IMG/VR virus record: IMGVR_UViG_3300035698_003736
Location: 1 to 24,014 of that record
Origin: a virus
Length of the DNA stretch: 24,014 nucleotides
Reading direction: 5' to 3' (one strand)
Below are positions 1,056 to 20,977 of this stretch, piece after piece (position 1 is the first letter of the stretch; each line of letters begins with the position of its first letter). The notes below the pieces were generated by a model, which worked only from the letters and a program-made list of their open reading frames with translations, did no database searches and was not told the origin of the DNA. The position numbers were made by a program, and so were the translations under genes.

Positions 1056-1475
1056 ATGAGCGAGGGAAAAAAATCTTTGCGGATAAAATGTACTTCAATT
1101 GATGATGATAATGCATTAAACAACTATAAGCTAACCGCTGAGAATACTTTTTATATTAGATTTTGCTCAGTTCTTGAAGGGATATTACCTTTAACTAAGC
1201 AAGAAAGAAATGTGCTAGCTGAGATACTGTATATGAATTATATGTTCAGAGATAAAATTGAAGATGATGCGCATAGATGGGCTTATATATTAAGCAATAA
1301 ATGTAGGAAAGATATGGTAGATAAATTAAATTTATCTTATAGTAGCTTCAGTAATCATCTAAGTAATTTTAGAAAAGCAAATATATTAAAGAATGATAGA
1401 GTTATAGACAACTTAGTTATATATCCAGTTGATAATGCTTTTTCTTTAACTTTCAATTTTGAGATTATAAAATGA
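1056..1475 (+). CDS. Putative winged-helix/HTH DNA-binding protein (139 aa)
   Basis: The start ATG 1056 follows an A-rich leader. Residues 46-66 (LTKQERNVLAEILY and onward) resemble the first helix of a winged-helix domain. Residues 84-112 contain CRKDMVDKLNLSYSSFSNHL followed by SNFRKANIL, the pattern of a helix-turn-helix whose recognition helix is followed by 'L..L.KA.IL' and a short beta wing (RVIDNLVIYP). This layout is typical of phage or plasmid regulators and RepL-like proteins. The N-terminal 40 residues are not recognised. The next gene overlaps its stop by four bases (ATGA), so the two are probably translated together. A regulatory or DNA-transaction role is inferred from the fold only. 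Confidence 0.6.
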   Translation: MSEGKKSLRIKCTSIDDDNALNNYKLTAENTFYIRFCSVLEGILPLTKQERNVLAEILYMNYMFRDKIEDDAHRWAYILSNKCRKDMVDKLNLSYSSFSNHLSNFRKANILKNDRVIDNLVIYPVDNAFSLTFNFEIIK

Positions 1476-1720
1476 AAGATAATAAGGGTATAGGGAGAAA
1501 AAGAGATCCTAGATTTGTAGAAGAACTTAGACAAATAGCTAAGAAACATAATATAAGTATTGATATAGTTAATAGCGTAGCAATTAGTCAATTTAAATTA
1601 GTTAAAATTGCTATGAATAAAAAGCTTAATATTAGACTATTTAAGCTAACTATGTTTTATAACAGGCAAAGAAAAAATCCAGATTATTTAGAAATGAAAA
1701 AGTTAGAACATGAAAGCTGA
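1472..1720 (+). CDS. Conserved-looking small basic protein (82 aa)
   Basis: ATG 1472 overlaps the preceding TGA. The product is basic and helical. It contains DPRFVEELRQIAKKHNISID, then a stretch around SQFKLVKIAMNK, then FKLTMFYNRQRK. The order 'SQFK-hydrophobic-x-x-x-M ... F-x-L-x-x-F' resembles a short family I recall from Bacteroidota and other large phages, in which the end reads like 'YFGKF'; no function is known to me. Its basic charge would fit nucleic-acid or capsid contact. It lies inside a run of overlapping genes, so co-translation is likely. The ORF is convincing because of the overlaps on both sides; the function is not. Confidence 0.55.
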   Translation: MKDNKGIGRKRDPRFVEELRQIAKKHNISIDIVNSVAISQFKLVKIAMNKKLNIRLFKLTMFYNRQRKNPDYLEMKKLEHES

Positions 1721-2539: not shown

Positions 2540-2863
2540 ATGAAAACAATTAAAGAGTATATACCAGTAGGAAACTTTGTTTTACTTACTGCTGAGTACA
2601 CAATGAATGGGGCAGATGAAATATTAGGAGATAAAGGCACAAGAGCTGTTAATAGATTTCAAAAAGTAATTAGTGTTGGGCCTGATGTAGTTAAGGATGC
2701 TATTTTTGTAGGAGATATTGTAGATATTGACGTGGAAGCATTTGATCCTGTTAAGCATCTTGTAATAATGTTAGAGCATCCTGAAGATCCTGAACAAACT
2801 ATTTTTAATATCAAATACCCTTTATACTTGATAAAAGGTGTTGTAACTTTTAATGAACAATAA
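2540..2863 (+). CDS. GroES-like co-chaperonin (Cpn10), phage-encoded
   Basis: The 107-residue product fits the GroES fold: an N-terminal strand (YIPVGNFVLL, 7-16), a flexible polar loop (19-38), then QKVISVGPDV (41-50) matching the GroES 'G-V-x-A-V-G' strand, FVGDIVDIDV (56-65) matching 'VGDIV', and a C-terminal strand near 94-104 (PLYLIKGVVTF) matching 'ESDILAIVE'. The loop holds EIL at 27-29, in the place of the Ile-Val-Leu that GroES uses to bind GroEL. It is longer than E. coli GroES (97) and close to phage T4 gp31 (111). The chaperonin gene starts three bases after its stop, the usual groES-groEL order. Overall identity to GroES is low, so the neighbour strengthens the call. It would cap the folding chamber in the host cytoplasm. 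Confidence 0.8.
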   Translation: MKTIKEYIPVGNFVLLTAEYTMNGADEILGDKGTRAVNRFQKVISVGPDVVKDAIFVGDIVDIDVEAFDPVKHLVIMLEHPEDPEQTIFNIKYPLYLIKGVVTFNEQ

Positions 2864-2866
2864 GAT

Positions 2867-4459
2867 ATGTCTAAAGAATTAATTGGTGGAACGATAGCTC
2901 GTGCAAGATTAGTAGCAGGAGTTAATAAATTATCATTTGCTGTGTGCTCTACACTAGGGCCATTTGGTAAAAATGTAGTTTTGAAGAGGCATTATAATGC
3001 TCCAAAAATAACTAAAGATGGAGTTACAGTAGGTAGAGATTTAAGACTTAAAGATCAAATAGAAGATATTGGCTGTCTTTTAGCTAGGCAAGCATCTAGC
3101 CAGACAGCAGATAGTTCTGGAGATGGCACTACTACCTCTACTTTATTAACTAGCGAATTGCTGAATCATGCGATGGTTATATTAAAAGATAATCCCGAAG
3201 CCTTTGGGAATATCTCTGATAGTAAAGAAATATTTAAACATTGGGTATTAAATATTTTTAAATTCATTAAGGAAAATGAAATACCTTATGAAGATAAAAA
3301 AGCTATGATTAATCATGTAGCTCGTATTTCTACAAATAATGACCCTGAATTATATAATCTTATAGCTAATTGTTTAATAGAATTAGATGGTGGTTTAGAA
3401 ATTGTACTTAATGAATCTGCCTCAAAAGAATCTCATTATGAAATTCATAAAGGAATGTATTTTGAAGGGGGATTTATGAGTAAAGAATTTATCACAGATA
3501 CTCGAAGTAATATATGTGAATTGGATGATGTCCTTATATTAATTACTGATATTGAATTAAATTACCCAGAACAAATAAGAGATTTTGCTAGAAAAATACT
3601 TGGACAAAAGAAAAAATTACTTATCATTGCACCTAAGGTCAGCGGAATGGTTTTGGAAATGCTTGCAAAAGCAGCTATAGTATCTAAAGACTTATGTGTT
3701 ATTAAGTCTCCAGGGATTAATATTCGTAGAGAAGAAATGCTTGAAGATATAGCTTGCTTTACTAATGGTACTGTTTTAAGAACTATTAAAGGACATAGAA
3801 TTGAAGAGATTACTCATTATACAGGAATTTTAGGAGTAGCAGATAAAGTAGTAATTAAGAATGATAGTACTACAATTATATCTCATGCTGGCCAAAGTGA
3901 TAGATTAAAAGAGAGAATTGAAATTATAGAAGAGACTATTCTTAAAACAATAGATCCTACTTTAAGAGCTAGGTACGAAAATAGGTTAAGTAATTTAACA
4001 GGTGGAGTAGGTATCATATATGTAGGCGCTTACACTGAGCCTGAATTAAAAGAGAAAAAAGACAGACTAGACGATGCTAAATGCGCAGTTAAATCTGCTT
4101 TATCTGAAGGAGTTGTTCTTGGTGGTGGATACATATTTAATAAATACGCTGATACTTTTAAAGATCAGTTACAACAAAGTCCAGAAGGAAAAATTATTTA
4201 TCATGCATTAAAACAACCTATGAGATTTATATGGGAAGTTAATGGTAAAAAGAAAGTCCCTGAAAACTATTTAGAATACTTAACAGCAAACAATGTAATA
4301 GATCCTATTATGGTTCTTAAAGATTGCATCAAGAACTCCATTAGTGTTGCTCACTCCATATTAAGCACAGATGTAGTAATTATAGATGATGAAGAATCAA
4401 ATGAAAATCTTGGAGATATGCCCTGCATAGAAGATTTAATCGCAGATAAAAATGAATGA
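2867..4459 (+). CDS. GroEL-like chaperonin (Cpn60), phage-encoded
   Basis: The 530-residue protein is a full-length group I chaperonin, an ATP-driven folding ring. It has TLGPFG (29-34), ITKDGVTVGRD with D51, GDGTTT (85-90) with the ATP/Mg residue D86, EIHKGMYFEGGFMSKEFI (192-209) in the apical hinge, RLDDA with D403 (the E. coli D398 catalytic position), GVVLGGG (415-421), and NVIDP with D479 (E. coli D495). The ATPase site is therefore intact. It lacks the Gly-Gly-Met C-terminal tail and ends in an acidic stretch. The apical domain (about 190-375) is the least familiar part, so substrate and cap preference may differ from the host ring. It follows the GroES-like gene by three bases and overlaps the next gene by eight. 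Codon use matches the phage genes around it, suggesting long residence. Likely clients are capsid or other abundant virion proteins (inference). Confidence 0.95.
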   Translation: MSKELIGGTIARARLVAGVNKLSFAVCSTLGPFGKNVVLKRHYNAPKITKDGVTVGRDLRLKDQIEDIGCLLARQASSQTADSSGDGTTTSTLLTSELLNHAMVILKDNPEAFGNISDSKEIFKHWVLNIFKFIKENEIPYEDKKAMINHVARISTNNDPELYNLIANCLIELDGGLEIVLNESASKESHYEIHKGMYFEGGFMSKEFITDTRSNICELDDVLILITDIELNYPEQIRDFARKILGQKKKLLIIAPKVSGMVLEMLAKAAIVSKDLCVIKSPGINIRREEMLEDIACFTNGTVLRTIKGHRIEEITHYTGILGVADKVVIKNDSTTIISHAGQSDRLKERIEIIEETILKTIDPTLRARYENRLSNLTGGVGIIYVGAYTEPELKEKKDRLDDAKCAVKSALSEGVVLGGGYIFNKYADTFKDQLQQSPEGKIIYHALKQPMRFIWEVNGKKKVPENYLEYLTANNVIDPIMVLKDCIKNSISVAHSILSTDVVIIDDEESNENLGDMPCIEDLIADKNE

Positions 4460-5000
4460 TTTGTTAGAGATAAAAGATAACAGAATAGTTTTTGCTCCAC
4501 AAGCCCTAAGCCTTAAACCGTTTAGGGCTTTGTGGGATAGGGATGATACTATTAATAAAGATAGAGCTACTAAAGAATTATGTTTTATATATTATTACTC
4601 TCATTTTAAATCGGAATTTTCTGATTTATTAGATGATCAAGAACGTAAAGAAGCCATACTGGAAGTTATTCCTGAAGTAGTTGTAGATGAATTAGTTTTA
4701 GATGCTTGTGATTTTTTTGAAGAAAGACAATCAACTACTAATTTACAGATGTTAAAGTCAGCTAAGAAAGCAGCTAATAAAATAAAAGATTATTACGACA
4801 ACGTAGATTTAGAAAAGCTTGATACTAAAACTAATAAACCTGTATGGGACGTTACTAAATTACAAAATTCAATTAAAGATTTAGCTAATACTATTAAAGG
4901 TCTTAATGATTTAGAAGCTGAAGTTAAAAAAGAAATAGAGAATAAAAGTAATATGAAAGGGTCAAGATCTAAAAAATTACTAGAAGATGGTTTGTTGTAA
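4452..5000 (+). CDS. Helical protein upstream of TerL; candidate terminase small subunit
   Basis: ATG 4452 overlaps the chaperonin stop by eight bases, and the gene overlaps the terminase start by 14. The 182-residue product is helical. Near the N-terminus PFRALWDRDDT and KELCFIYYYSHFKSEF follow a pattern I recall in proteins just upstream of the large terminase in Bacteroidota phages ('F..lWdRDk....A.keL.yIyf'). Residues 95-170 predict a long helix or coiled coil (KKAANKIKDYYDNV, TKLQNSIKDLANTIKGLNDL), and the end is basic (KGSRSKK). Position, size and coiled coil suit a small terminase subunit, but no clear HTH is visible, so this is inference. An unusually strong hairpin lies in codons 16-28. 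Confidence 0.6.
   Translation: MNDLLEIKDNRIVFAPQALSLKPFRALWDRDDTINKDRATKELCFIYYYSHFKSEFSDLLDDQERKEAILEVIPEVVVDELVLDACDFFEERQSTTNLQMLKSAKKAANKIKDYYDNVDLEKLDTKTNKPVWDVTKLQNSIKDLANTIKGLNDLEAEVKKEIENKSNMKGSRSKKLLEDGLL
4497..4535 (+). other. Strong GC-rich hairpin near the start of the pre-terminase gene
   Basis: CCAC-AAGCCCTAA (4497-4509) pairs with TTAGGGCTT-T-GTGG (4522-4535): 13 base pairs with one bulged T (4531) and a 12-base loop. The arms are far richer in GC than the surrounding DNA. No T-run follows, so it is not a standard terminator. It starts 45 bases after ATG 4452. It could be a pac-type site, an mRNA processing or stability element, or a translation control. Confidence 0.5.
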
Positions 5001-7353
5001 TGAAGTAAATACTTCTTTATCAGCAGAAACTTTTAATAGTTTTTCTGAAAATATAAAATATGAATTATCTGATGTATTAGATAAAATTATTCTTGTACAA
5101 AGAATGATAGATCCTAATAGAGAAAAAGCAATAGACAAAGAAAAAGATAATTTAGGCAGAGTAATAGTAGATATAACTAATCCACATATATTAGAAAATA
5201 TGGATTATTTTAGATTACCTGCTATACATTTTAAAGAATTTGGTAAATTTACTAACGCATATCCAAATCAGCATCCTAATTCTGATTACGTTAAATTTTG
5301 GAAACAAGAAACTAGGTATTGTATAGACGGTAAAGTAAGAAATAGTGATGGCGAGTGGGTAACTGGTTATCACTATTTCTATTTAAATTTTTCTCCAATA
5401 CAACTTACGGAAGATAAACTAGCTCCGTCACAGAAAAAAACATCTAAAAATACACAAGCTGACAGAGTACAAGATTTTCCTGCTATATGGGATGGCGATT
5501 ATCTTTATTATCATTATTTAGAGAAAGCTGAAAACAATGGAGAATACGGAACAGTTTTAAAGACTAGAGGTAGAGGATTCTCATTTAAAGGAGGATCAAT
5601 GACTGGTAGAAATATGGAATGTATAAAACAATCTAAAACTTTCTTAATGGCATCTGAAACTGAATATTTAAATAAAGATGGTATATGGAATAAATTTAAT
5701 GACGTACTAGATTTTTGTGCAGAGCATACAGAGTGGCCTACTGGTAGATTAAAGGATGATCAAAATAAAATGCATATCCGTTTAGGATATAAACATTCTG
5801 AAACTTCTAATCCTACTGGTGTAAAATCAGAAGCTTTTGGAGTAACACTAAAAGATGCTCCACAAAAAGCAAGGGGAAAAAGAGGTAAGTTAATACAATG
5901 GGAAGAGGCAGGTAAATTTCCTGGCTTGCTAAAAGCATGGTCTATTGCAAGAATGTCCTTAGAAGATGGACGATCTGTATTTGGATTGATGGTTGCTTTT
6001 GGTACAGGAGGAACTGTGGGAGCTGACTTTGAAGCATTAGAAAAGTTATTTTACAGCCCAAGAGGTTACAGGGTACATGCTTTACCAAATGTATTTGATA
6101 AAGTAGCTGGTAAAGGTGAATGTGCTTTCTTTTTTCCAGAGTATCTTAATAGAAAACATTGCTATGATAAAGACGGCAATTCTGATGTTATTAAAGCTCT
6201 TATAGAAATACTTGAAGATAGAGAGGACATTAGAAAAGGTACAGATGATCCAACTGCGTTAACTCAAGAGAAAGCAGATAGACCTATTACTCCCCAAGAA
6301 GCAGTAATGCGTACTGAGGGTAATAAATTTCCTGTAACTCAATTGAAAGATTATTTAGAAGATATAATGCCTACTATAGATGTATTTTGGGCAGAGCATT
6401 TATATGGTCAATTAATTCAAACAGGAGAAAGAGAAGTAGTATTAAAACAAGATGTAGGACACGTTATTAGAGAGTTCCCTATAAAAGATAAAACTAGAGT
6501 AGCTGGGGCAACTGAAATATTTGAGTTACCAAAGAAAGTAAAGAAATCAGATGGATCAGAATATACTCCTAGTGGTAGGTATATAGGAGGGATAGACACT
6601 TATGACGATGATACAGGAACGTCTTTAGGATCTATATTTATATTAGATTTATGGACTGATAGAATTGTAGCTGAATATACAGGACGACCTAATACAGCAG
6701 ATGACTTTTATGAAACATGCGCTAACTTGTTATTGTTTTATAGAGCAACTGCTAATTATGAAAATAATAAAAAAGGTCTTTTTGGATGGTTTAGAAATCA
6801 TCATTTACTTCATCTATTATGTGATACTCCTCAGATATTAAAAGACATGGACTTAGTTAAAGCGCAAGAAGCTTTTGGTAACAAAGCTAAAGGAACTAAC
6901 GCTACTTTGCCTATAAATAATTGGGCTTTAAATCTTCAAGTAGGGTGGATGAAAGGTAATGCATACACTGAAGAAGCTTTAGAACAAATAGAAGAATTAG
7001 ATGAAAGTGCCGATTTAAAAGAAATACTACTTCCTAAAAGATTAAGAACGATCAGAAGTGTACCTTACATTAAAGAATGTATAGCATTCAATGAAGATGG
7101 TAATTTTGACAGAATTTCTGCTATGGGAATGTTAATGATTTATAGAGAAGATAGGCAATTATATATAGGATCACACACTGGTCAAGAAGAAGATGATTTA
7201 ACAAATGATGAGTTCTTCAATAGAAACTACGAAGTTAGTAATGAAGCTGGAGAAAATTATTTTGATAGAACAGATTATTCTGACAAAAAATCAAATAATA
7301 TTTCTACTTTCGTAGACATTGATCAATTCAACTTAGAAGATTACTTAAACTAA
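4987..7353 (+). CDS. terL: Terminase large subunit (TerL), DNA-packaging ATPase and nuclease
   Basis: The 788-residue protein carries both terminase domains. ATPase: KTRGRGFSFKG (192-202) occupies the Walker A place, LIQWEEAG (302-309) is Walker B with the catalytic Glu, and VAFGTGG (336-342) fits the coupling motif. Nuclease (RNase H-like): D537 in GGIDTYDDDTG, E592 in ANYENN and D708 in NFDRISAMGM are the expected metal-binding acids. It powers DNA packaging through the portal and cuts the concatemer. Walker A lacks the usual GK[ST]. The length exceeds that of many TerL proteins but fits those I recall from crAss-like phages. ATG 4987 lies 14 bases inside the previous gene; an out-of-frame ATG at 5000 stops after two codons and is rejected. 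Order TerL-portal-scaffold-capsid is standard. Confidence 0.93.
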   Translation: MVCCNEVNTSLSAETFNSFSENIKYELSDVLDKIILVQRMIDPNREKAIDKEKDNLGRVIVDITNPHILENMDYFRLPAIHFKEFGKFTNAYPNQHPNSDYVKFWKQETRYCIDGKVRNSDGEWVTGYHYFYLNFSPIQLTEDKLAPSQKKTSKNTQADRVQDFPAIWDGDYLYYHYLEKAENNGEYGTVLKTRGRGFSFKGGSMTGRNMECIKQSKTFLMASETEYLNKDGIWNKFNDVLDFCAEHTEWPTGRLKDDQNKMHIRLGYKHSETSNPTGVKSEAFGVTLKDAPQKARGKRGKLIQWEEAGKFPGLLKAWSIARMSLEDGRSVFGLMVAFGTGGTVGADFEALEKLFYSPRGYRVHALPNVFDKVAGKGECAFFFPEYLNRKHCYDKDGNSDVIKALIEILEDREDIRKGTDDPTALTQEKADRPITPQEAVMRTEGNKFPVTQLKDYLEDIMPTIDVFWAEHLYGQLIQTGEREVVLKQDVGHVIREFPIKDKTRVAGATEIFELPKKVKKSDGSEYTPSGRYIGGIDTYDDDTGTSLGSIFILDLWTDRIVAEYTGRPNTADDFYETCANLLLFYRATANYENNKKGLFGWFRNHHLLHLLCDTPQILKDMDLVKAQEAFGNKAKGTNATLPINNWALNLQVGWMKGNAYTEEALEQIEELDESADLKEILLPKRLRTIRSVPYIKECIAFNEDGNFDRISAMGMLMIYREDRQLYIGSHTGQEEDDLTNDEFFNRNYEVSNEAGENYFDRTDYSDKKSNNISTFVDIDQFNLEDYLN

Positions 7354-7361
7354 ATTATAAG

Positions 7362-9782
7362 ATGCAATACTTTCCTAAACAAAAAATAAGCAATACCGCA
7401 AAAACCCTTGCTTGGGCAAAAGAATGTGGAGAAGCTGCTATAGGTTTATGTTCAGTAGAAAACCCTAGAATAAGAAGTTCTAGGAGAGATAAAATAATTA
7501 ATTTTAATTTAGCTAATGATATATTAGATGATAGAGATGTAAGAAGGATAGGTAATCCTTTTAATATTAAAGGACTTTCTTTCCCAGCTAAGATGCAGAA
7601 TTATCCTATTAGTATGCCTAAAATAGATCTACTAACGGGAGAAGAATCAAAAAGAAAGTTTGAAATAAATGTAGTCGCTTTATCAAGAGATGCTATTGAA
7701 GCTAAAAGTAAAAAGAAAATTGAATACGTAAGAGAAAGAATAACTCAGTTAATAAAACAAGATGGAGCTTTAAATGAAAACAAAGTTTCTAATGAATTAA
7801 GAAAGTTAATTGATTATGCTAATTATGAAATAAAAGACTTTAGGGAAATAGCAGGTAATTTAATACTGAATCATTATAAGAAAGAATTAAATTTTGATAA
7901 GACTTTTAATGATGGGATGCAAGAATTACTTCTTGTAGCAGAAGAAAGTTATTGTATTGATATAGAAGCTAATGAACCTATTTTAAGAAAATGTAACCCT
8001 TTAAGTTTAGAAAGTTATAGAACAGGTAACTCTCCTTGGTTACAAGATGCTGATATTATAAAAGAATGTGATTACTTGCCTATAGGAAAAGTTATTGACA
8101 GATATAATGATTACTTAAAACCTGGTGAAATAGATCAAATAGAAAGTAGAAATTTTTCAGAAGGTGGAGATAGTATTTTAAAAATAAGACCTGATAGTGA
8201 TTTTACTACTTTACCAAGAGATACTTTTGGGCCAACTGGTAATGCAGTGTTTGACTTTGGGGGAGGTGATTTATATAATCCAAATGGATTAGATGCAACT
8301 AATAGTTTTGGTACTTCTTTTGATATGGAAGGAAATATATTAGTAACAAGAGTAGTTTGGAGATCTATGCGTAAAGTAGGTTTTCTTACTTATTTTGATG
8401 AAGATGGTAGACCTCAAAAAGAAGTAGTAGATGAACGCTTTAAAGCAAATAGTAACTTAGGGCAAGTTGTTAGTTGGAGATGGATTAATGAATGGTGGGA
8501 AATTACTAAATTAGGAGCAGGTGAAGATGCTATATATATTAAAGCAAGACGTAGACCCGTTCAATTTAGAAAATCTGGAAACCCATCAATTTGCCATTCT
8601 GGCTACGTAGGCTTAGCATATAATATTAATACTAGCAAAGCTATAAGTTTATTAGATAGAATGAAGCCATTGCAGTATATGTATAACGTATTAATGTATA
8701 GGACAGAATTAGCTTTCGCTAAATCTCATGGTAAAATTATGAGACTTCCATTACATGAAATTCCAGATAAATGGAGTATAGATAAATACCTTGCATTTGC
8801 TTTTGGTCAAAACATAGCACCTTATGATGCATTTAAAGAAATTAAAAAAGGGCCAGCTACAGGTAAATTAGCAGGTAATATGCAACAAAATAACCATGTT
8901 ATTGATATGGAAATGAGTGCCTATATTCAACAACATGTAGACTTCATGATGTATATTAAAGAAGAGATAGGAGAAATAAGTGGAGTATCTAAATCTAGGC
9001 AAGGACAAATTCACCAAAGACAAGCTGTAGGAAATTCAAGAACTGAAATCACTCAATCAAGTCATATAACAGAAAGATGGTTTATGCTACATGATCTTGT
9101 TAAAAAGATGGTATATGAAACTTTCTTAGATACTGCTATAGTAGCTTTAAAAGATAATAAACATAAAGCACAGATTATATTAGGTGAATTTATGGAAGAG
9201 AATATTGATCTTACCATGAATGGTCTTACTCAATGTGAATTAGGACTAGCAACTTCCAACGCTACTGATGATATGGAATTATTACAAATGTTGAAGGAAA
9301 CTAGTAGAGAAGCAGTAGCTGCAAAGCAAATAGATTTTATAGAATTAACTCATATATATGGATCTAAAAGTATATCTGAAATTACTCGTAAATTAGAATC
9401 TAGCCACCAAGCTAAAATAGCAAGGGAACAAGCTCAAGCTGATGATCAGAATGAAACTATTAAAGCAGTTAGTCAAGCTGAAACAGAATGGGAAAAAGAG
9501 AAGCATTATAGTGAACAAGAGTTAAAGAAATATCAAATAGATTATGATAATCTAATAAAAGAAAAAGCTCTTTTAGCCAATTCAGATCAAGAAAATGGAT
9601 TAATGGAAAGAACTGTTACTTTAGAAACTCTTAAACAAAATCATAGAAAAATAGAAGATGCTTATAATGTTAATATGAAAAAAATAACATTAGATAAAGA
9701 AAAATTAGACGAAACAATAAGATCTAATAAAAGTAAGGAACAAATAGCTAAGATGAAACCCAAAGCAATCACAAGTAAGTAA
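7362..9782 (+). CDS. Portal protein
   Basis: The 806-residue protein follows TerL by eight bases, the usual portal position and about the size of crAss-like portals. The N-terminus (WAKECGEAAI, then PRIRSSRRDKIINFNLANDIL at about 36-55, then NPF and FPAKMQNYPISMPKIDLLTGEE at 65-95) follows the pattern I know from Bacteroidota phage portals ('R.sR..k..Ny.L.ngil', 'f....P.l..LiGEE'). The middle holds a mixed clip/stem-like region, and GVSKSRQGQIHQRQAVGN near 547-564 looks like a conserved portal stem segment. From about residue 680 to the end it is a long charged coiled coil, probably the internal barrel or crown. The protein forms the twelve-fold DNA channel at one capsid vertex and docks TerL. 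It has an A-rich leader with no Shine-Dalgarno sequence. Confidence 0.88.
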   Translation: MQYFPKQKISNTAKTLAWAKECGEAAIGLCSVENPRIRSSRRDKIINFNLANDILDDRDVRRIGNPFNIKGLSFPAKMQNYPISMPKIDLLTGEESKRKFEINVVALSRDAIEAKSKKKIEYVRERITQLIKQDGALNENKVSNELRKLIDYANYEIKDFREIAGNLILNHYKKELNFDKTFNDGMQELLLVAEESYCIDIEANEPILRKCNPLSLESYRTGNSPWLQDADIIKECDYLPIGKVIDRYNDYLKPGEIDQIESRNFSEGGDSILKIRPDSDFTTLPRDTFGPTGNAVFDFGGGDLYNPNGLDATNSFGTSFDMEGNILVTRVVWRSMRKVGFLTYFDEDGRPQKEVVDERFKANSNLGQVVSWRWINEWWEITKLGAGEDAIYIKARRRPVQFRKSGNPSICHSGYVGLAYNINTSKAISLLDRMKPLQYMYNVLMYRTELAFAKSHGKIMRLPLHEIPDKWSIDKYLAFAFGQNIAPYDAFKEIKKGPATGKLAGNMQQNNHVIDMEMSAYIQQHVDFMMYIKEEIGEISGVSKSRQGQIHQRQAVGNSRTEITQSSHITERWFMLHDLVKKMVYETFLDTAIVALKDNKHKAQIILGEFMEENIDLTMNGLTQCELGLATSNATDDMELLQMLKETSREAVAAKQIDFIELTHIYGSKSISEITRKLESSHQAKIAREQAQADDQNETIKAVSQAETEWEKEKHYSEQELKKYQIDYDNLIKEKALLANSDQENGLMERTVTLETLKQNHRKIEDAYNVNMKKITLDKEKLDETIRSNKSKEQIAKMKPKAITSK

Positions 9783-11079: not shown

Positions 11080-12552
11080 ATGAACAAACTATCACCGTTA
11101 CAAATGACTGAAGCTATTAGCTGGTCTGGTATGGGAACAAAAGCCCACCTTAATAAAATCTATGCTACATCTCCTCAGATAGCTAGTAAGATAATTACTA
11201 AAATCTATGCCGCTAACTTTGGTATGACTACTGACGCTTATATGAGCGAAACAGGCGCAGTACTTACTTTGGACTCGGATGATGATTACACTTGGAGACT
11301 TATGGGTTCCTCTAAAAAGAATCTACCTCTTGTAGAAGCTCGTATTAATGGTTCTCCTATTACACCTATTTCGCGTTGTGGACAGAACCATGGTGAATTT
11401 GAGCTTGTATTTAGTGAGTTTTATTTTCATGACCAGCAATTAATTGTAGGACATAAAAATGAAATTTACTCTATGCAAATTTTATCTGACCCAATTAAAG
11501 AGGGAACTAATTTTGTATATCGTTTAAGGTTGCTTACAGGAGATCAGACACTATTTGTTCCTTTTGAAGAATTAGTAGCTGGTAAAAGGTTTAGTAAAGA
11601 TTGGACACCTGTTGAGCAAACACTGTCTAAAAAAGGTAGCCCTGTTGACTTTACTTCATCTTACGATATGCGTAATGCATTCACTATGATTCGTAAAGAA
11701 CAAACTTACCCCGGTAATACTAAAAACCGACCTATTGGTACTGCACTTAAAGATTCAAAAGGTAATAAGTTTATTTTGTGGGAGCAATATGTTTCTTATG
11801 AATTAACTCAACAATTGAACCAAGAAAAGAATCATGCTTTAGTTTTTGCTACAGCTAACCGTTCACAAGATGGTACTTACAAAAATCAAGGTCTTTCTGG
11901 TAACATGGTTGTTCAAGGTGCTGGCTTACGTCAACAATCTGAATGTTCAAATACTGAATTTTACACAGACTTCAATATTGACTTACCTACTAATATGCTA
12001 GTAGATCTTTCTGAAGGTAAACTGACTTCAGATAAGCGAAAGTTTATCATGAAAACAGGAGAAAGAGGAATGATTAAATTCCATAAAGCATTAGAAGATA
12101 AAGTACATTTGTACACTCCTAATGAAGATAGTTCACGTTTATATGGCGTAGCTAAATCTGGAGTTGAAATGGGTAAAGGTTATGGTGGACAGTTTATAGA
12201 ATATAAAGGGCCAAATGGTGTAGTTATTTCTATTGAAGCTGATTCAAGTTATGACAACAGAGTTCGTAACAAAATCTACCACTTTGGTGGAGGAGTTGCT
12301 GAGTCTCACCGATTTGACTTGTTTGATATTGGAACTACAAATGCTGAACCTAATGTTCGTAAAGTAGTACCAAAAGGTTTAGAGTTATTTATGGGAATTA
12401 TTCCTGGTTTGAGAGATCCAAGAGATGCCAGTGATAATAAAATTATGGCCACTGGTGTAGATGGTTGGACAGAACACAAAGGTTGTTATATTTCAGGTAT
12501 GATAACTGACCCAACTAAAACAGCATCTTTAATTCCTGATGTGTTATCTTAA
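11080..12552 (+). CDS. Probable major capsid protein (HK97-type)
   Basis: It follows the scaffold candidate and has the size (490 residues) I expect for crAss-like and related capsid proteins. The N-terminus (GTKAHLNKIYATSPQIASKI) and LDSDDDYTWRLMGSSKKNLP with LVEARI (about 65-90) match the pattern I recall from capsid proteins of Bacteroidota phages. MKTGERGMIKFHKALED (near 324-340) resembles the G-x-x-G and long helix of the HK97 fold. Arginine codon choice differs sharply from the neighbours: by my reading 13 of 20 Arg codons are CGT/CGA, where TerL uses almost only AGA, as expected of a very highly expressed gene. The A-rich leader fits too. An alternative abundant virion protein cannot be excluded without a structure search. 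Confidence 0.75.
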   Translation: MNKLSPLQMTEAISWSGMGTKAHLNKIYATSPQIASKIITKIYAANFGMTTDAYMSETGAVLTLDSDDDYTWRLMGSSKKNLPLVEARINGSPITPISRCGQNHGEFELVFSEFYFHDQQLIVGHKNEIYSMQILSDPIKEGTNFVYRLRLLTGDQTLFVPFEELVAGKRFSKDWTPVEQTLSKKGSPVDFTSSYDMRNAFTMIRKEQTYPGNTKNRPIGTALKDSKGNKFILWEQYVSYELTQQLNQEKNHALVFATANRSQDGTYKNQGLSGNMVVQGAGLRQQSECSNTEFYTDFNIDLPTNMLVDLSEGKLTSDKRKFIMKTGERGMIKFHKALEDKVHLYTPNEDSSRLYGVAKSGVEMGKGYGGQFIEYKGPNGVVISIEADSSYDNRVRNKIYHFGGGVAESHRFDLFDIGTTNAEPNVRKVVPKGLELFMGIIPGLRDPRDASDNKIMATGVDGWTEHKGCYISGMITDPTKTASLIPDVLS

Positions 12553-13467: not shown

Positions 13468-14223
13468 ATGACTGCTAATGAAATGATGTCTGAATTAGAA
13501 AAGCAATTAGATGCAGCTGGATCTGATGATGCTCCTTATATTCCAGATGAACAAGGTTCTACATTTATTAATGATGCTATAACTTCCTTAATTAAAAAAG
13601 TGATTTTTGAAGGTGTAGAAGCAAATGAATATAATAGAGGATTTATTGCTCCTTTAAAAAGAAATAGTGGAACTAGTAATTTTGTTAGTACTAAAGTAAC
13701 ATCTAATTTATTGACTCAAGCTCATGATCATGGCGAAATGTGGACACTCCCTGATAATCTTTATTACATATTACAAGAAGATTGTCTTATAGATAAAAGG
13801 GATTGTTTTACAGGAGAGTTAGCTACCTTAAACATTTTACCAGTTTCAGAAGATTATTATAACTTAAATATAAAGAATTTTGAAAAGAAACCATATTTTA
13901 ATGGTGCTGATCGAGATGGTTTAATTTGGAGACTTTACTACAACAATAATATTTCAGAAACACCTTCATTTATTAATAATAAAATTTCTGAACTTATATC
14001 AGATAAAACTTTTAATATTACTCAATATAATTTTAGATATTTGATCAAGCCTAGAAATGTTGTAATTAATAGAGATAACCCTGCATTACAAGGCAATTCT
14101 GAAATATGGGATCAGTTCCATTTCGATATTGTAAATAGAGCAACTTTAATTGCAATAGATAATTTAAGGTTAGTAAATAGATTTCAAACCAAAGGAACTT
14201 TAAACGCACAACAAAATCTTTAA
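13468..14223 (+). CDS. Head-tail connector-type virion protein (251 aa)
   Basis: The layout fits a family I recall just after the capsid genes of Bacteroidota phages: an N-terminal helical start (MTANEMMSELEKQLDA), a helix that binds neighbours (FINDAITSLIKKVIFEGVEA), a strand with LPDNLYYILQEDCLID (94-109), LPVSEDYYNLNIKNFEKKPY (128-147), and YNFRYLIKPRNVVINRD followed by IWDQFHFDIVNRATLIAI near the end. In related proteins these read 'P.dv..i..E', 'PVthDey.r...NPfk.P', 'Y..rYikrP.piiL' and 'H..IV..A..la'. This suggests a ring or adaptor protein below the portal; the exact ring is unclear. It is preceded by a three-base gap and followed by a 30-base A/T-rich leader. Confidence 0.65.
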   Translation: MTANEMMSELEKQLDAAGSDDAPYIPDEQGSTFINDAITSLIKKVIFEGVEANEYNRGFIAPLKRNSGTSNFVSTKVTSNLLTQAHDHGEMWTLPDNLYYILQEDCLIDKRDCFTGELATLNILPVSEDYYNLNIKNFEKKPYFNGADRDGLIWRLYYNNNISETPSFINNKISELISDKTFNITQYNFRYLIKPRNVVINRDNPALQGNSEIWDQFHFDIVNRATLIAIDNLRLVNRFQTKGTLNAQQNL

Positions 14224-18391: not shown

Positions 18392-20977
18392 ATGAGATTA
18401 ATTGAACAAATAAATAAATCATATCACATTAGATTAAAAGATCAACTTGAAAGAGATGATGTAAATATCAAGGTAGAGGATTTTGTTAAATTTCTAAGTA
18501 ATGTATTTGTTGAAACAGCAAATGATAATGGTGGCCCTATCTTTCAAACAACCACTGGGTTTGATCAAGTTATATGGGTAAGCACAACAGGAAACGATAG
18601 TACAGGAACACCAAATGATGTGCTGCTTCCTTATTTAACAATTAAAGCAGGTATCAATGCAGCTAATACTCAAAGAGTAAAAATTATCATTGCTGTAGGC
18701 AACTATGTTGAAGAAGCAGATTTATTGGAGTCACTTTCACTTTTTGTTAACGAATTGTATATTGAAAGCTCGGCAACTTTGATTACGTCAGACCGAATGA
18801 TCTGGATAAGATCACCACAAAATCTAAGGATATTTTCATTTTTTGGCCCAGCCACTGATTTTATAGGGTCTGCAAGTGCAATGGTTGAACATTCAAGCGC
18901 AAATCTTGAGAGGTTTATTTTTATTGCAAATTCTGGTTCTCACACACTTGTAAATTCTCTTGTTTATGCTGCCCTTAGTCTTAATTGTCATTCTACAGTT
19001 GTATTTAATGGAGATATTACGGGAAGCATTGCGATTAGAGGAGGTTATAAACAAGAAGTGTTTGTTAGGGGAAACATAATAAATTCAGGCAGTAATCAAT
19101 GGGGATTCTGTATAGAATTAAGAGCAATAACAGGTGATGTTTATATTAAGGTATTTGGTAAACTTATTAACACTGGCCAGACAGACAATAGAGGAAAAAT
19201 AATCTTTATTCAGGGAGTAACCTGTCCAAACGCTAGAGTTATTGTAGAAGGGGATATAGAATCAGCAAAAAATAATACAGAAGGTTTAATCAGATTTGAA
19301 GCAGGTACTAGAATTGGGGAATTTACTTATAAAGGTACAGTAAATTCAACAGTAGGGGGTATATTTATTCCAGTAATTGGTTCCCATCCTCATTCATTTA
19401 TTTGCAATATTCATGCATCTGGTTACATTAATGGAGGTAAAATTTTGTCATTTGCTTCTGCGTCGTTAGTAAATAGAGCAACTTTTAATTTTTCTGGACA
19501 GTTACTTTGCAATACTCCAAATTCTCTATTTTCTTTGAACGGGTTGTTTACTTTGAATCTTAGTAATTTTGATATTAAACAATTAGGTTCAGGATCTTTA
19601 TTTCAATTTCCAGCTACTACAGCATTAACTGTAGATGATAATATAATAGCAACTGATAACTTTCAGCTTAATTATGGTACACCTACTGGCCCTACATTAA
19701 TTACTCCACCAACAGTTAGTTCTGGAGTGTATGTTATTAAATCAATAGGTACATTCCGAAGCAATATTGTTGATGATTCATTACCCAGTTATGTTACATT
19801 GGTTTATGATCGTGATTTAACAACTAGATTACTTGGTAATGGAGATATAATGTCAGATGGCAGTGTAGATTTCGTTGCACCTCAAGTTGGTGTTCCGGCT
19901 GTTAATCAAAATCAGTTGGTTACGCTATCTCAAATTACCAAACAAGTAAATCAAACTGATTGGACTTATGTAAATGTTGAATTTAGTCAATGGCGTTCAA
20001 TAACAACAATAAACAACAGAGTTGTAGCGGTAGCAGATAATGGTACAAATCGAGTAATGTACTCAGATAATTTTGGAGTAACATGGACTTATGTAGCTGT
20101 GCAACCCAGTCAATGGCAGCAAATAACATCTATAAATAACACAAGATTAGTAGCGGTAGCATCTTTTGGCACAAATCAAGTAATGTACTCGGACGACTTC
20201 GGTGCAACATGGACTTTCGTAAATGTTCAAGCTAGTGTTTGGGTTTCAATAACTGCAATAAATAATAGACTAGTAGCGGTTGCTAATAGTGGCACGAATC
20301 GAGTAATGTACTCAGATAATTTTGGAGTAACATGGACTTATGTAAATGTTCAAGCTAGTGTTTGGACTTCAATAACTGCAATAAATAATAGATTAGTTGC
20401 AATAGGACTAAACGGCACAAATCGAGTAATGTATTCAGATGATTTTGGGGCAACATGGACTTATGTAGCCGTACAAGACAGTATTTGGATGTCAATAACA
20501 AAAATAAACAATAGATTAGTAGTTGTTGCACAGGCTGGTACAAATCGAGTAATGTATTCTGATGATTTTGGAGTAACTTGGAGCTATATAGCTGTTCAAA
20601 ATAGTAGTTGGTGGTCAATAACTTCTATCAACAATAGATTAGTAGCGGTAGCTGGTTTTGGTTCAAATCGAGTAATGTACTCAGACGACTTCGGAGTAAC
20701 GTGGACTTTTGTAAATGTGCAAGACAGTAGTTGGTTGTCAATAACAACAATAAACAACAGACTTGTAGCGGTAGCAGATAATGGTACAAATCGAGTAATG
20801 TACTCCGATGTTACAGAAATTTCACTTCCATTTTTAAATCAAGTTGCTTTAAAAGTTTCAGCAAATGATTTAGAAATCACTGATACTCTTAAAGGAGTAA
20901 TAATAACGTCTCCTAACGCTACAAGATATAGAGTAACAGTAGATAATTCAGGAGTGTTAATAGTAACAGCAGTATAA
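18392..20977 (+). CDS. Tail spike/fibre: beta-helix-like domain plus seven-repeat Asp-box propeller
   Basis: The 861-residue protein has four parts. Residues 1-55: helical attachment region. About 60-420: VIWVSTTGNDSTGT, LPYLTIKAGINAA, IIIAVGNYVEEAD match the start of a pectate-lyase-like parallel beta-helix ('V.tTGnD.tG...PyaTi..Ai...'), a fold common in host-polysaccharide-binding spikes. 489-515: a linker shared with the next protein (GVPAVNQNQLVTLSQI). 524-806: seven repeats of about 41 residues ending in MYSDDFGATW-type Asp-boxes (S-x-D-x-G-x-T-W), as in sialidase-type propellers; the last copy lacks the box. 831-861: a C-terminal tip (GVIITSPNATRYRVTV) like those I recall from Bacteroidota phage fibres. 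No catalytic residues are identified. Its likely job is receptor binding. Confidence 0.82.
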   Translation: MRLIEQINKSYHIRLKDQLERDDVNIKVEDFVKFLSNVFVETANDNGGPIFQTTTGFDQVIWVSTTGNDSTGTPNDVLLPYLTIKAGINAANTQRVKIIIAVGNYVEEADLLESLSLFVNELYIESSATLITSDRMIWIRSPQNLRIFSFFGPATDFIGSASAMVEHSSANLERFIFIANSGSHTLVNSLVYAALSLNCHSTVVFNGDITGSIAIRGGYKQEVFVRGNIINSGSNQWGFCIELRAITGDVYIKVFGKLINTGQTDNRGKIIFIQGVTCPNARVIVEGDIESAKNNTEGLIRFEAGTRIGEFTYKGTVNSTVGGIFIPVIGSHPHSFICNIHASGYINGGKILSFASASLVNRATFNFSGQLLCNTPNSLFSLNGLFTLNLSNFDIKQLGSGSLFQFPATTALTVDDNIIATDNFQLNYGTPTGPTLITPPTVSSGVYVIKSIGTFRSNIVDDSLPSYVTLVYDRDLTTRLLGNGDIMSDGSVDFVAPQVGVPAVNQNQLVTLSQITKQVNQTDWTYVNVEFSQWRSITTINNRVVAVADNGTNRVMYSDNFGVTWTYVAVQPSQWQQITSINNTRLVAVASFGTNQVMYSDDFGATWTFVNVQASVWVSITAINNRLVAVANSGTNRVMYSDNFGVTWTYVNVQASVWTSITAINNRLVAIGLNGTNRVMYSDDFGATWTYVAVQDSIWMSITKINNRLVVVAQAGTNRVMYSDDFGVTWSYIAVQNSSWWSITSINNRLVAVAGFGSNRVMYSDDFGVTWTFVNVQDSSWLSITTINNRLVAVADNGTNRVMYSDVTEISLPFLNQVALKVSANDLEITDTLKGVIITSPNATRYRVTVDNSGVLIVTAV
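19856..19936 (+). repeat. 81-base linker module, copy 1 (shared by both fibres)
   Basis: This segment encodes 27 residues ending NQLVTLSQI. It matches 21191-21271 in the next gene with 20 of 27 residues identical and no gap; the last 25 bases differ at one position. It joins the beta-helix part to the propeller here. Confidence 0.8.
19961..20809 (+). repeat. Seven tandem Asp-box propeller repeats (about 123 bases each)
   Basis: Seven in-frame units (41, 42, 41, 41, 41, 41 and 36 residues) share W[TS]-[YF]-[VI]-x-V-x-x-S-x-W-x-x-I-T-x-I-N-N-x-R-[LV]-V-x, then G-[TS]-N-x-V-M-Y-S-D. Units 3 and 4 are nearly identical in DNA, pointing to recent duplication or conversion. Variable positions cluster after the first V-Q and around V-A-x-x-G. 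Confidence 0.9.

What the first reader, a model, noticed from the sequence alone, without database searches (positions are those of the whole stretch)
2540..4459. Phage-encoded GroES/GroEL pair at the head of the packaging and capsid block
The sequence shows a co-chaperonin-like gene and a chaperonin gene with intact ATPase residues (D51, D86, D403, D479) directly upstream of the terminase genes, in the bacterial order. Known phage cases are usually a lone cap (T4 gp31, which borrows host GroEL) or a lone ring (such as Pseudomonas phage EL). A complete matched pair in a Bacteroidota phage with divergent apical domain, an EIL loop on the cap and no Gly-Gly-Met tail suggests a private folding machine for a virion protein the host ring cannot handle.
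Basis: partly seen in the sequence, partly recalled or inferred. Interest (0 to 1): 0.75.

Follow-up and report, generated by a model that had tools for sequence, protein, structure and literature searches.

The report
Crass-like phage's own chaperonin pair
This crass-like phage carries both the lid and the barrel of a protein-folding machine just ahead of its DNA-packaging genes; such phage pairs are already known, but this barrel belongs to an old crass-phage lineage that has lost a piece present in ordinary bacterial barrels.

Summary
2867-4459 is a Cpn60 (group I chaperonin) gene with all catalytic residues; 2540-2863 is a distant GroES/gp31-type cap. Both lie in one operon with TerS and TerL of a Steigviridae-like crass phage. 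The claimed novelty does not hold: phages with both GroES and GroEL are documented (PMC7185714) and include named Bacteroidota phages (Immuto, Elemo, Calle, DAC16, cr111_1); 55 of 74 IMG/VR ring loci with room have a cap immediately upstream. The cap is no new pickup: it is the homologue of crAss001 Gp15 ('putative 10kDa chaperonin'), which sits just upstream of TerS in 78 of 80 related contigs, none with a ring in the fetched flank. The ring is the variable part: a 100/100 clade (window, L009, L010), with further rings in phi14:2, cr108_1, cr111_1 and L016. All seven lack roughly 17-32 residues of the equatorial domain, where E. coli GroEL has adenine and inter-ring contacts; about 195 comparison rings keep this segment. 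Best reading: a phage lid that usually works on host GroEL was joined, in some lineages, by a phage ring, to fold virion proteins. Cap-ring partnership and substrate are inferred. New variant of a known kind.

The parts
1056..1475 (+). 139-aa gene at the position of the crAss001 VpsT-like regulator; opens the syntenic block
   Evidence: blastp to L009 (6.5e-26), phi14:2 g098 (1.6e-10), cr108_1 VpsT-like (3e-8), small database
1472..1720 (+). 82-aa gene at the position of crAss001 'HU'; conserved in L009
   Evidence: 46% identity over 82 aa to L009 4798-5046; no detectable similarity to crAss001 Gp14
2540..2863 (+). Cap: 107-aa distant GroES/gp31-like co-chaperonin, homologue of crAss001 Gp15
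   Evidence: phrog_931 3.7e-4; PDB gp31 E 0.015; HMM of other Steigviridae caps 5e-8; Foldseek gp31; hhalign chain
2867..4459 (+). Ring: 530-aa Cpn60 subunit with intact ATPase residues and a shortened equatorial domain
   Evidence: Pfam 3e-39, model pLDDT 89.3, residue table, segment length
4452..5000 (+). TerS-like 182-aa gene, start overlaps the ring stop
   Evidence: phrog_16390 2.6e-13; model of TerS-position genes found directly before TerL in relatives; TerS by position only
4987..7353 (+). Terminase large subunit
   Evidence: phrog_6681 1.3e-103; tblastn to Steigviridae
11080..12552 (+). Crass major capsid protein, the first candidate substrate (inferred)
   Evidence: PF23898 6.5e-130

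Best explanation
A phage-encoded group I chaperonin pair. The cap is an old Steigviridae GroES/gp31-like lid kept in the packaging operon. In most relatives it is the only phage chaperonin part, so it presumably caps host GroEL, as T4 gp31 does. In this lineage a Cpn60 ring stands between cap and TerS and has long been resident there. The 3-base cap-ring gap and overlapping stop/start codons ensure co-expression with packaging genes. Rings of the phage subunit would take up unfolded virion proteins (most likely the 490-aa capsid protein or another large structural protein) and be closed by the phage lid in an ATP-driven cycle. Shown: gene identities, order, catalytic residues, lineage, synteny, equatorial deletion. 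Inferred: that cap and ring act on each other, ring number, substrate.
For: Cpn60 with all catalytic residues and a confident GroEL fold. Cap linked to GroES and gp31. Same order cap-ring-TerS-TerL in L009, ring 52% identical. Cap just upstream of TerS in 78 of 80 contigs. GroES-binding positions altered in window, L009, L010: Y203 to E/H/E, V264 to K/K/R. Ring GC and codon usage like virion genes.
Against: The window cap is too divergent for direct GroES detection (window+L009 vs GroES only 37.6%) and its model is weak (pLDDT 60.6). The equatorial deletion touches ATP and inter-ring contacts, so a normal cycle is not assured. Ringless relatives carry homologous packaging genes, so the ring is not needed for crass capsids in general.
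Confidence: 0.68

Rival explanations
1. Neighbours but not partners: the cap serves host GroEL, as in ringless relatives, while the ring works with host GroES or without any cap, like the phage EL, OBP and AR9 chaperonins.
For: The cap occurs without a ring in most Steigviridae; phage chaperonins that need no cap exist (PMC9598537).
Against: In L009 and the window the two genes are adjacent and kept together; ring positions that bind GroES in E. coli are changed; EL lacks the deletion seen here.
Confidence: 0.2
2. The ring no longer works as a folding chamber: the equatorial deletion has turned it into a non-cycling holdase or a protein with another role in infection.
For: Segment G416-D495 is 48-63 residues in seven Steigviridae-type rings against 73 or more in all complete comparison rings; N479/A480 and E461/S463/V464 positions are lost.
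Against: All catalytic residues are invariant across the seven rings; a full GroEL fold is predicted with confidence; the ring is kept in several lineages.
Confidence: 0.08
3. Recent, incidental pickup of a host groEL without phage function.
For: Patchy ring presence on the TerL tree, five changes.
Against: Best cellular identity about 35%; 100/100 clade with two other crass contigs; GC and codon usage of a resident gene.
Confidence: 0.04

Closest known systems
crAss001 Gp15 family, 'putative 10kDa chaperonin' of Steigviridae
   Same: Homologous cap at the same place, just upstream of TerS
   Different: crAss001 and most relatives have no ring; the window cap is shorter and divergent
Chaperonins of Cellulophaga phage phi14:2, cr108_1, cr111_1 (Steigviridae) and contig L016
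   Same: Cpn60 with the same equatorial shortening, upstream of cap and TerS
   Different: 26-33% identical to the window ring; ring separated from the cap by several genes instead of lying between cap and TerS
GroES-GroEL pairs of Immuto, Elemo, Calle/phi38:1 and DAC16 phages of Bacteroidota
   Same: Phage-encoded cap and ring side by side or one gene apart
   Different: Full-length equatorial domain; caps recognised as ordinary GroES; not in the packaging block where context was read
T4 gp31 with host GroEL
   Same: Virus-specific GroES-type lid; nearest solved relative of the cap
   Different: T4 brings no ring of its own
Phage EL gp146 (OBP, AR9) chaperonins
   Same: Phage-encoded Cpn60
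   Different: No cap known; EL keeps the long equatorial segment (92 vs 59 residues); OBP and AR9 not compared here

Membership tests
Cpn60 / group I chaperonin (PF00118) | Family profile above cut-off over the three-domain fold | tested here: met
   3e-39, 135.5 bits vs cut-off 34.3; fold TM 0.85 to GroEL
Cpn60 / group I chaperonin (PF00118) | Catalytic residues D52, D87, T89-91, D398, D495 (E. coli) | tested here: met
Cpn60 / group I chaperonin (PF00118) | Complete equatorial domain with inter-ring and adenine-contact segment | tested here: not met
   59 vs 80 residues between G416 and D495
GroEL equivalog (TIGR02348) | Score above the equivalog cut-off | tested here: not met
   341.2 vs 582.1 bits; subfamily NF009487 just passed, 356.4 vs 352
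GroES / Cpn10 (PF00166) | Direct Pfam match above cut-off | tested here: not met
   no hit for the window protein; crAss001 Gp15 itself 17.7 vs 21.1 bits
GroES / Cpn10 (PF00166) | GroES fold and profile homology | tested here: inconclusive
   Through the Steigviridae caps strong (97.9% and 96.1%), direct only 37.6%; Foldseek gp31/GroES top but TM 0.38 on a weak model
crAss001 Gp15 cap family | Profile match and place directly upstream in the TerS-TerL block | tested here: met
   HMM built without it, E 5e-8; position as in crAss001 apart from the inserted ring
Crassvirales, Steigviridae-like | Crass capsid, portal and TerL | tested here: met
   PF23898 6.5e-130, phrog_6547, TerL nearest to Asinivirinae; family rank not formally assigned
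Working GroES-GroEL pair | Cap binds ring and drives ATP-dependent folding | not testable with these tools
   needs purified proteins

The most novel reading that the evidence does not exclude
Steigviridae rings are a distinct structural class of group I chaperonin: a shared equatorial deletion removes the usual inter-ring contacts and the adenine-contact loop, so they act as single rings or with a new interface, matched only to their own gp31-like cap and not to host GroES, and the ring was gained or lost at least four times on a background where the cap is nearly always kept.
Probability: 0.3. Interest if true: 0.62.

Novelty: new variant of a known kind. Interest (0 to 1): 0.45.

Why it matters
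Crass phages are among the most abundant human gut viruses, and I found no experimental work on how their capsid proteins fold. Relatives with cap only and with cap plus ring share the same packaging block, which makes a natural comparison for asking why a virus would carry its own folding chamber. The shortened ring would show which parts of GroEL are dispensable for a working cycle.

Tried and rejected
The AU test of 'window trio + Bacteroidota as one clade' was rejected (p 0.0006), but the control, Bacteroidota alone, was rejected too (p 0.011), so it is uninformative. Nesting with host-like rings (p 0.19) or with Immuto-type phage rings (p 0.34) is not rejected: the deep origin is unresolved. 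One origin of all seven Steigviridae-type rings is not rejected (p 0.44). The genes directly upstream of the ring in phi14:2 and cr108_1 were examined as caps and are not; their caps lie just before TerS. MT835992.1, labelled 'Bacteriophage sp.', looks like a bacterial contig with an ordinary groES-groEL operon beside metabolic genes and is not used as phage evidence. Single-ring phage chaperonins as an explanation of the deletion: EL does not share it. No dedicated analysis of crass chaperonins was found in the paper library; the study cited in PMC7185714 for phages with both genes (Marine et al.) was not held.

Full report
WHAT IS THERE. The window is a 24,014-base virus record. Its major capsid protein hits Pfam Crass_capsid at 6.5e-130, portal and TerL hit crass PHROGs, and TerL is about 38-42% identical to Steigviridae/Asinivirinae. 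Genes run on one strand: 1056-1475, 1472-1720, 1710-2270, 2267-2533, cap 2540-2863, ring 2867-4459, TerS-like 4452-5000, TerL 4987-7353, portal 7362-9782. The cap-ring gap is 3 bases and the ring stop overlaps the TerS start, so co-expression with packaging genes is very likely (inference from the sequence).

THE RING. It is a Cpn60 (Pfam 3e-39; NCBIfam NF009487 just passed, TIGR02348 equivalog not passed). AlphaFold gives pLDDT 89.3 and Foldseek TM 0.85 to GroEL. Against E. coli GroEL, D52, D87, T89-91, D398 and D495 are all kept. Divergence from Bacteroidota is even over the domains (apical 35%, equatorial 36%); between the window and its sister L009 the apical domain varies most (45% vs 59%).

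EQUATORIAL DELETION. Counted from E. coli G416 to D495, the stretch is 80 residues in E. coli, 80-81 in 30 Bacteroidota, 75-88 in 75 other cellular rings, 74-88 in 78 other viral rings and 73-92 in eleven further named phage rings including EL. It is 59, 59, 56, 57, 48, 54 and 63 in window, L009, L010, phi14:2, cr108_1, L016 and cr111_1. By alignment the missing part covers N479/A480 (adenine contact) and E461/S463/V464 (inter-ring contacts); these roles are from general knowledge of GroEL. A more distant crass ring, L098, keeps the full length (78) and is 47% identical to Bacteroidota GroEL. The deletion is thus shared by the Steigviridae-type rings, though the tree neither shows nor rejects their single origin (AU p 0.44).

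THE CAP. Pfam and NCBIfam find no GroES in it. But phrog_931 hits at 3.7e-4 and is the T4 gp31 family (gp31 itself 3.7e-50); T4 gp31 is the best PDB sequence hit (E 0.015) and the best fold hit (prob 0.99, E 0.03, then GroES chains), on a model of pLDDT 60.6 whose C-terminal third is unreliable. An HMM from ten Steigviridae caps without the window finds it at 5e-8. Those caps match phage GroES at 97.9% and window+L009 at 96.1% probability, while window+L009 directly against GroES gives only 37.6%; column-shuffled controls reach at most 1.4%. It is a distant GroES-type protein, linked through the crass family.

SYNTENY. In crAss001 the order is VpsT-like, HU, 'putative 10kDa chaperonin' (Gp15), Gp16 (matches the TerS model), two small genes, TerL. 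cr85_1, cr126_1, DAC15, cr112_1 and cr116_1 are similar. The window has the VpsT-position gene (homologous to phi14:2 g098 and the cr108_1 gene), small genes, cap, then the ring, then TerS. Of 80 IMG/VR contigs found through the cap, 78 have TerS downstream and none has a ring in the fetched flank. The tallies of phage records that match the ring leave no room for crAss001, DAC15, cr85_1, cr126_1, cr112_1, cr116_1 or cr128_1. The cap is the constant, the ring the variable: on a TerL tree ring presence needs five changes, at least four forced by well-supported branches. Absence in contig fragments means only 'not in the fetched stretch'. The nearest ringless relative, L011, has neither a recognisable cap nor a ring in its upstream 7 kb.

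PAIRS ARE NOT NEW. [quoted passage not shown] Annotated or readable pairs: Immuto, Elemo, Calle and phi38:1, DAC16, cr111_1. In IMG/VR, 55 of 74 ring loci with room have a GroES-like gene immediately upstream (some of these contigs may be host DNA).

AGE AND ORIGIN. Window, L009 and L010 rings form a 100/100 clade. No cellular ring found exceeds about 37% in the apical domain or about 35% overall. Ring GC is 31.2% against 31.3% for the window, and its codon usage is at least as close to portal+MCP as that of TerL. A recent host pickup is disfavoured; the deep branching is unresolved.

HOW IT LIKELY WORKS. By analogy with T4 gp31, the cap alone can redirect host GroEL to a virion protein; that would serve the ringless relatives. 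In this lineage a ring sits beside it, and ring positions that bind GroES in E. coli (general knowledge) are changed: Y203 to E/H/E and V264 to K/K/R in window, L009 and L010. This fits a matched pair better than use of host GroES. The substrate is unknown; the 490-aa capsid protein is the first candidate by size, abundance and location, but ringless relatives manage theirs without a phage ring. Identity of both genes: high confidence. That they act on each other: about 0.7. Capsid protein as main substrate: about 0.4.

Noticed in passing
window 18392-20977 (repeats 19961-20810): 861-aa putative fibre/tail protein with about seven 41-residue repeats, each with an Asp-box (SDDFGxTW); Pfam BNR 2.5e-12.
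   Followed up: partly
L098 3494-5484 (IMGVR_UViG_3300047666_000417): A more distant crass contig also has a ring right before TerS, full-length and 47% like Bacteroidota GroEL, preceded by a 124-aa ORF weakly like the crass caps (13.5 bits): possibly an independent ring gain at the same site.
   Followed up: partly
L286 2724-4623 (Bacteroides phage DAC16): An adjacent GroES-GroEL pair annotated as two hypothetical proteins.
   Followed up: partly
L016 6447-9596: TerS and TerL matches are split over several ORFs, which suggests introns or frameshifts in a crass contig that also has ring and cap.
   Followed up: no
L005 (MT835992.1): GenBank 'Bacteriophage sp.' record that reads like a bacterial chromosome fragment with an ordinary groES-groEL operon; such records inflate counts of phage chaperonins.
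   Followed up: no
window 13468-14223: Crass tail ring protein 3/4 (Pfam PF25710, 6.5e-13).
   Followed up: no
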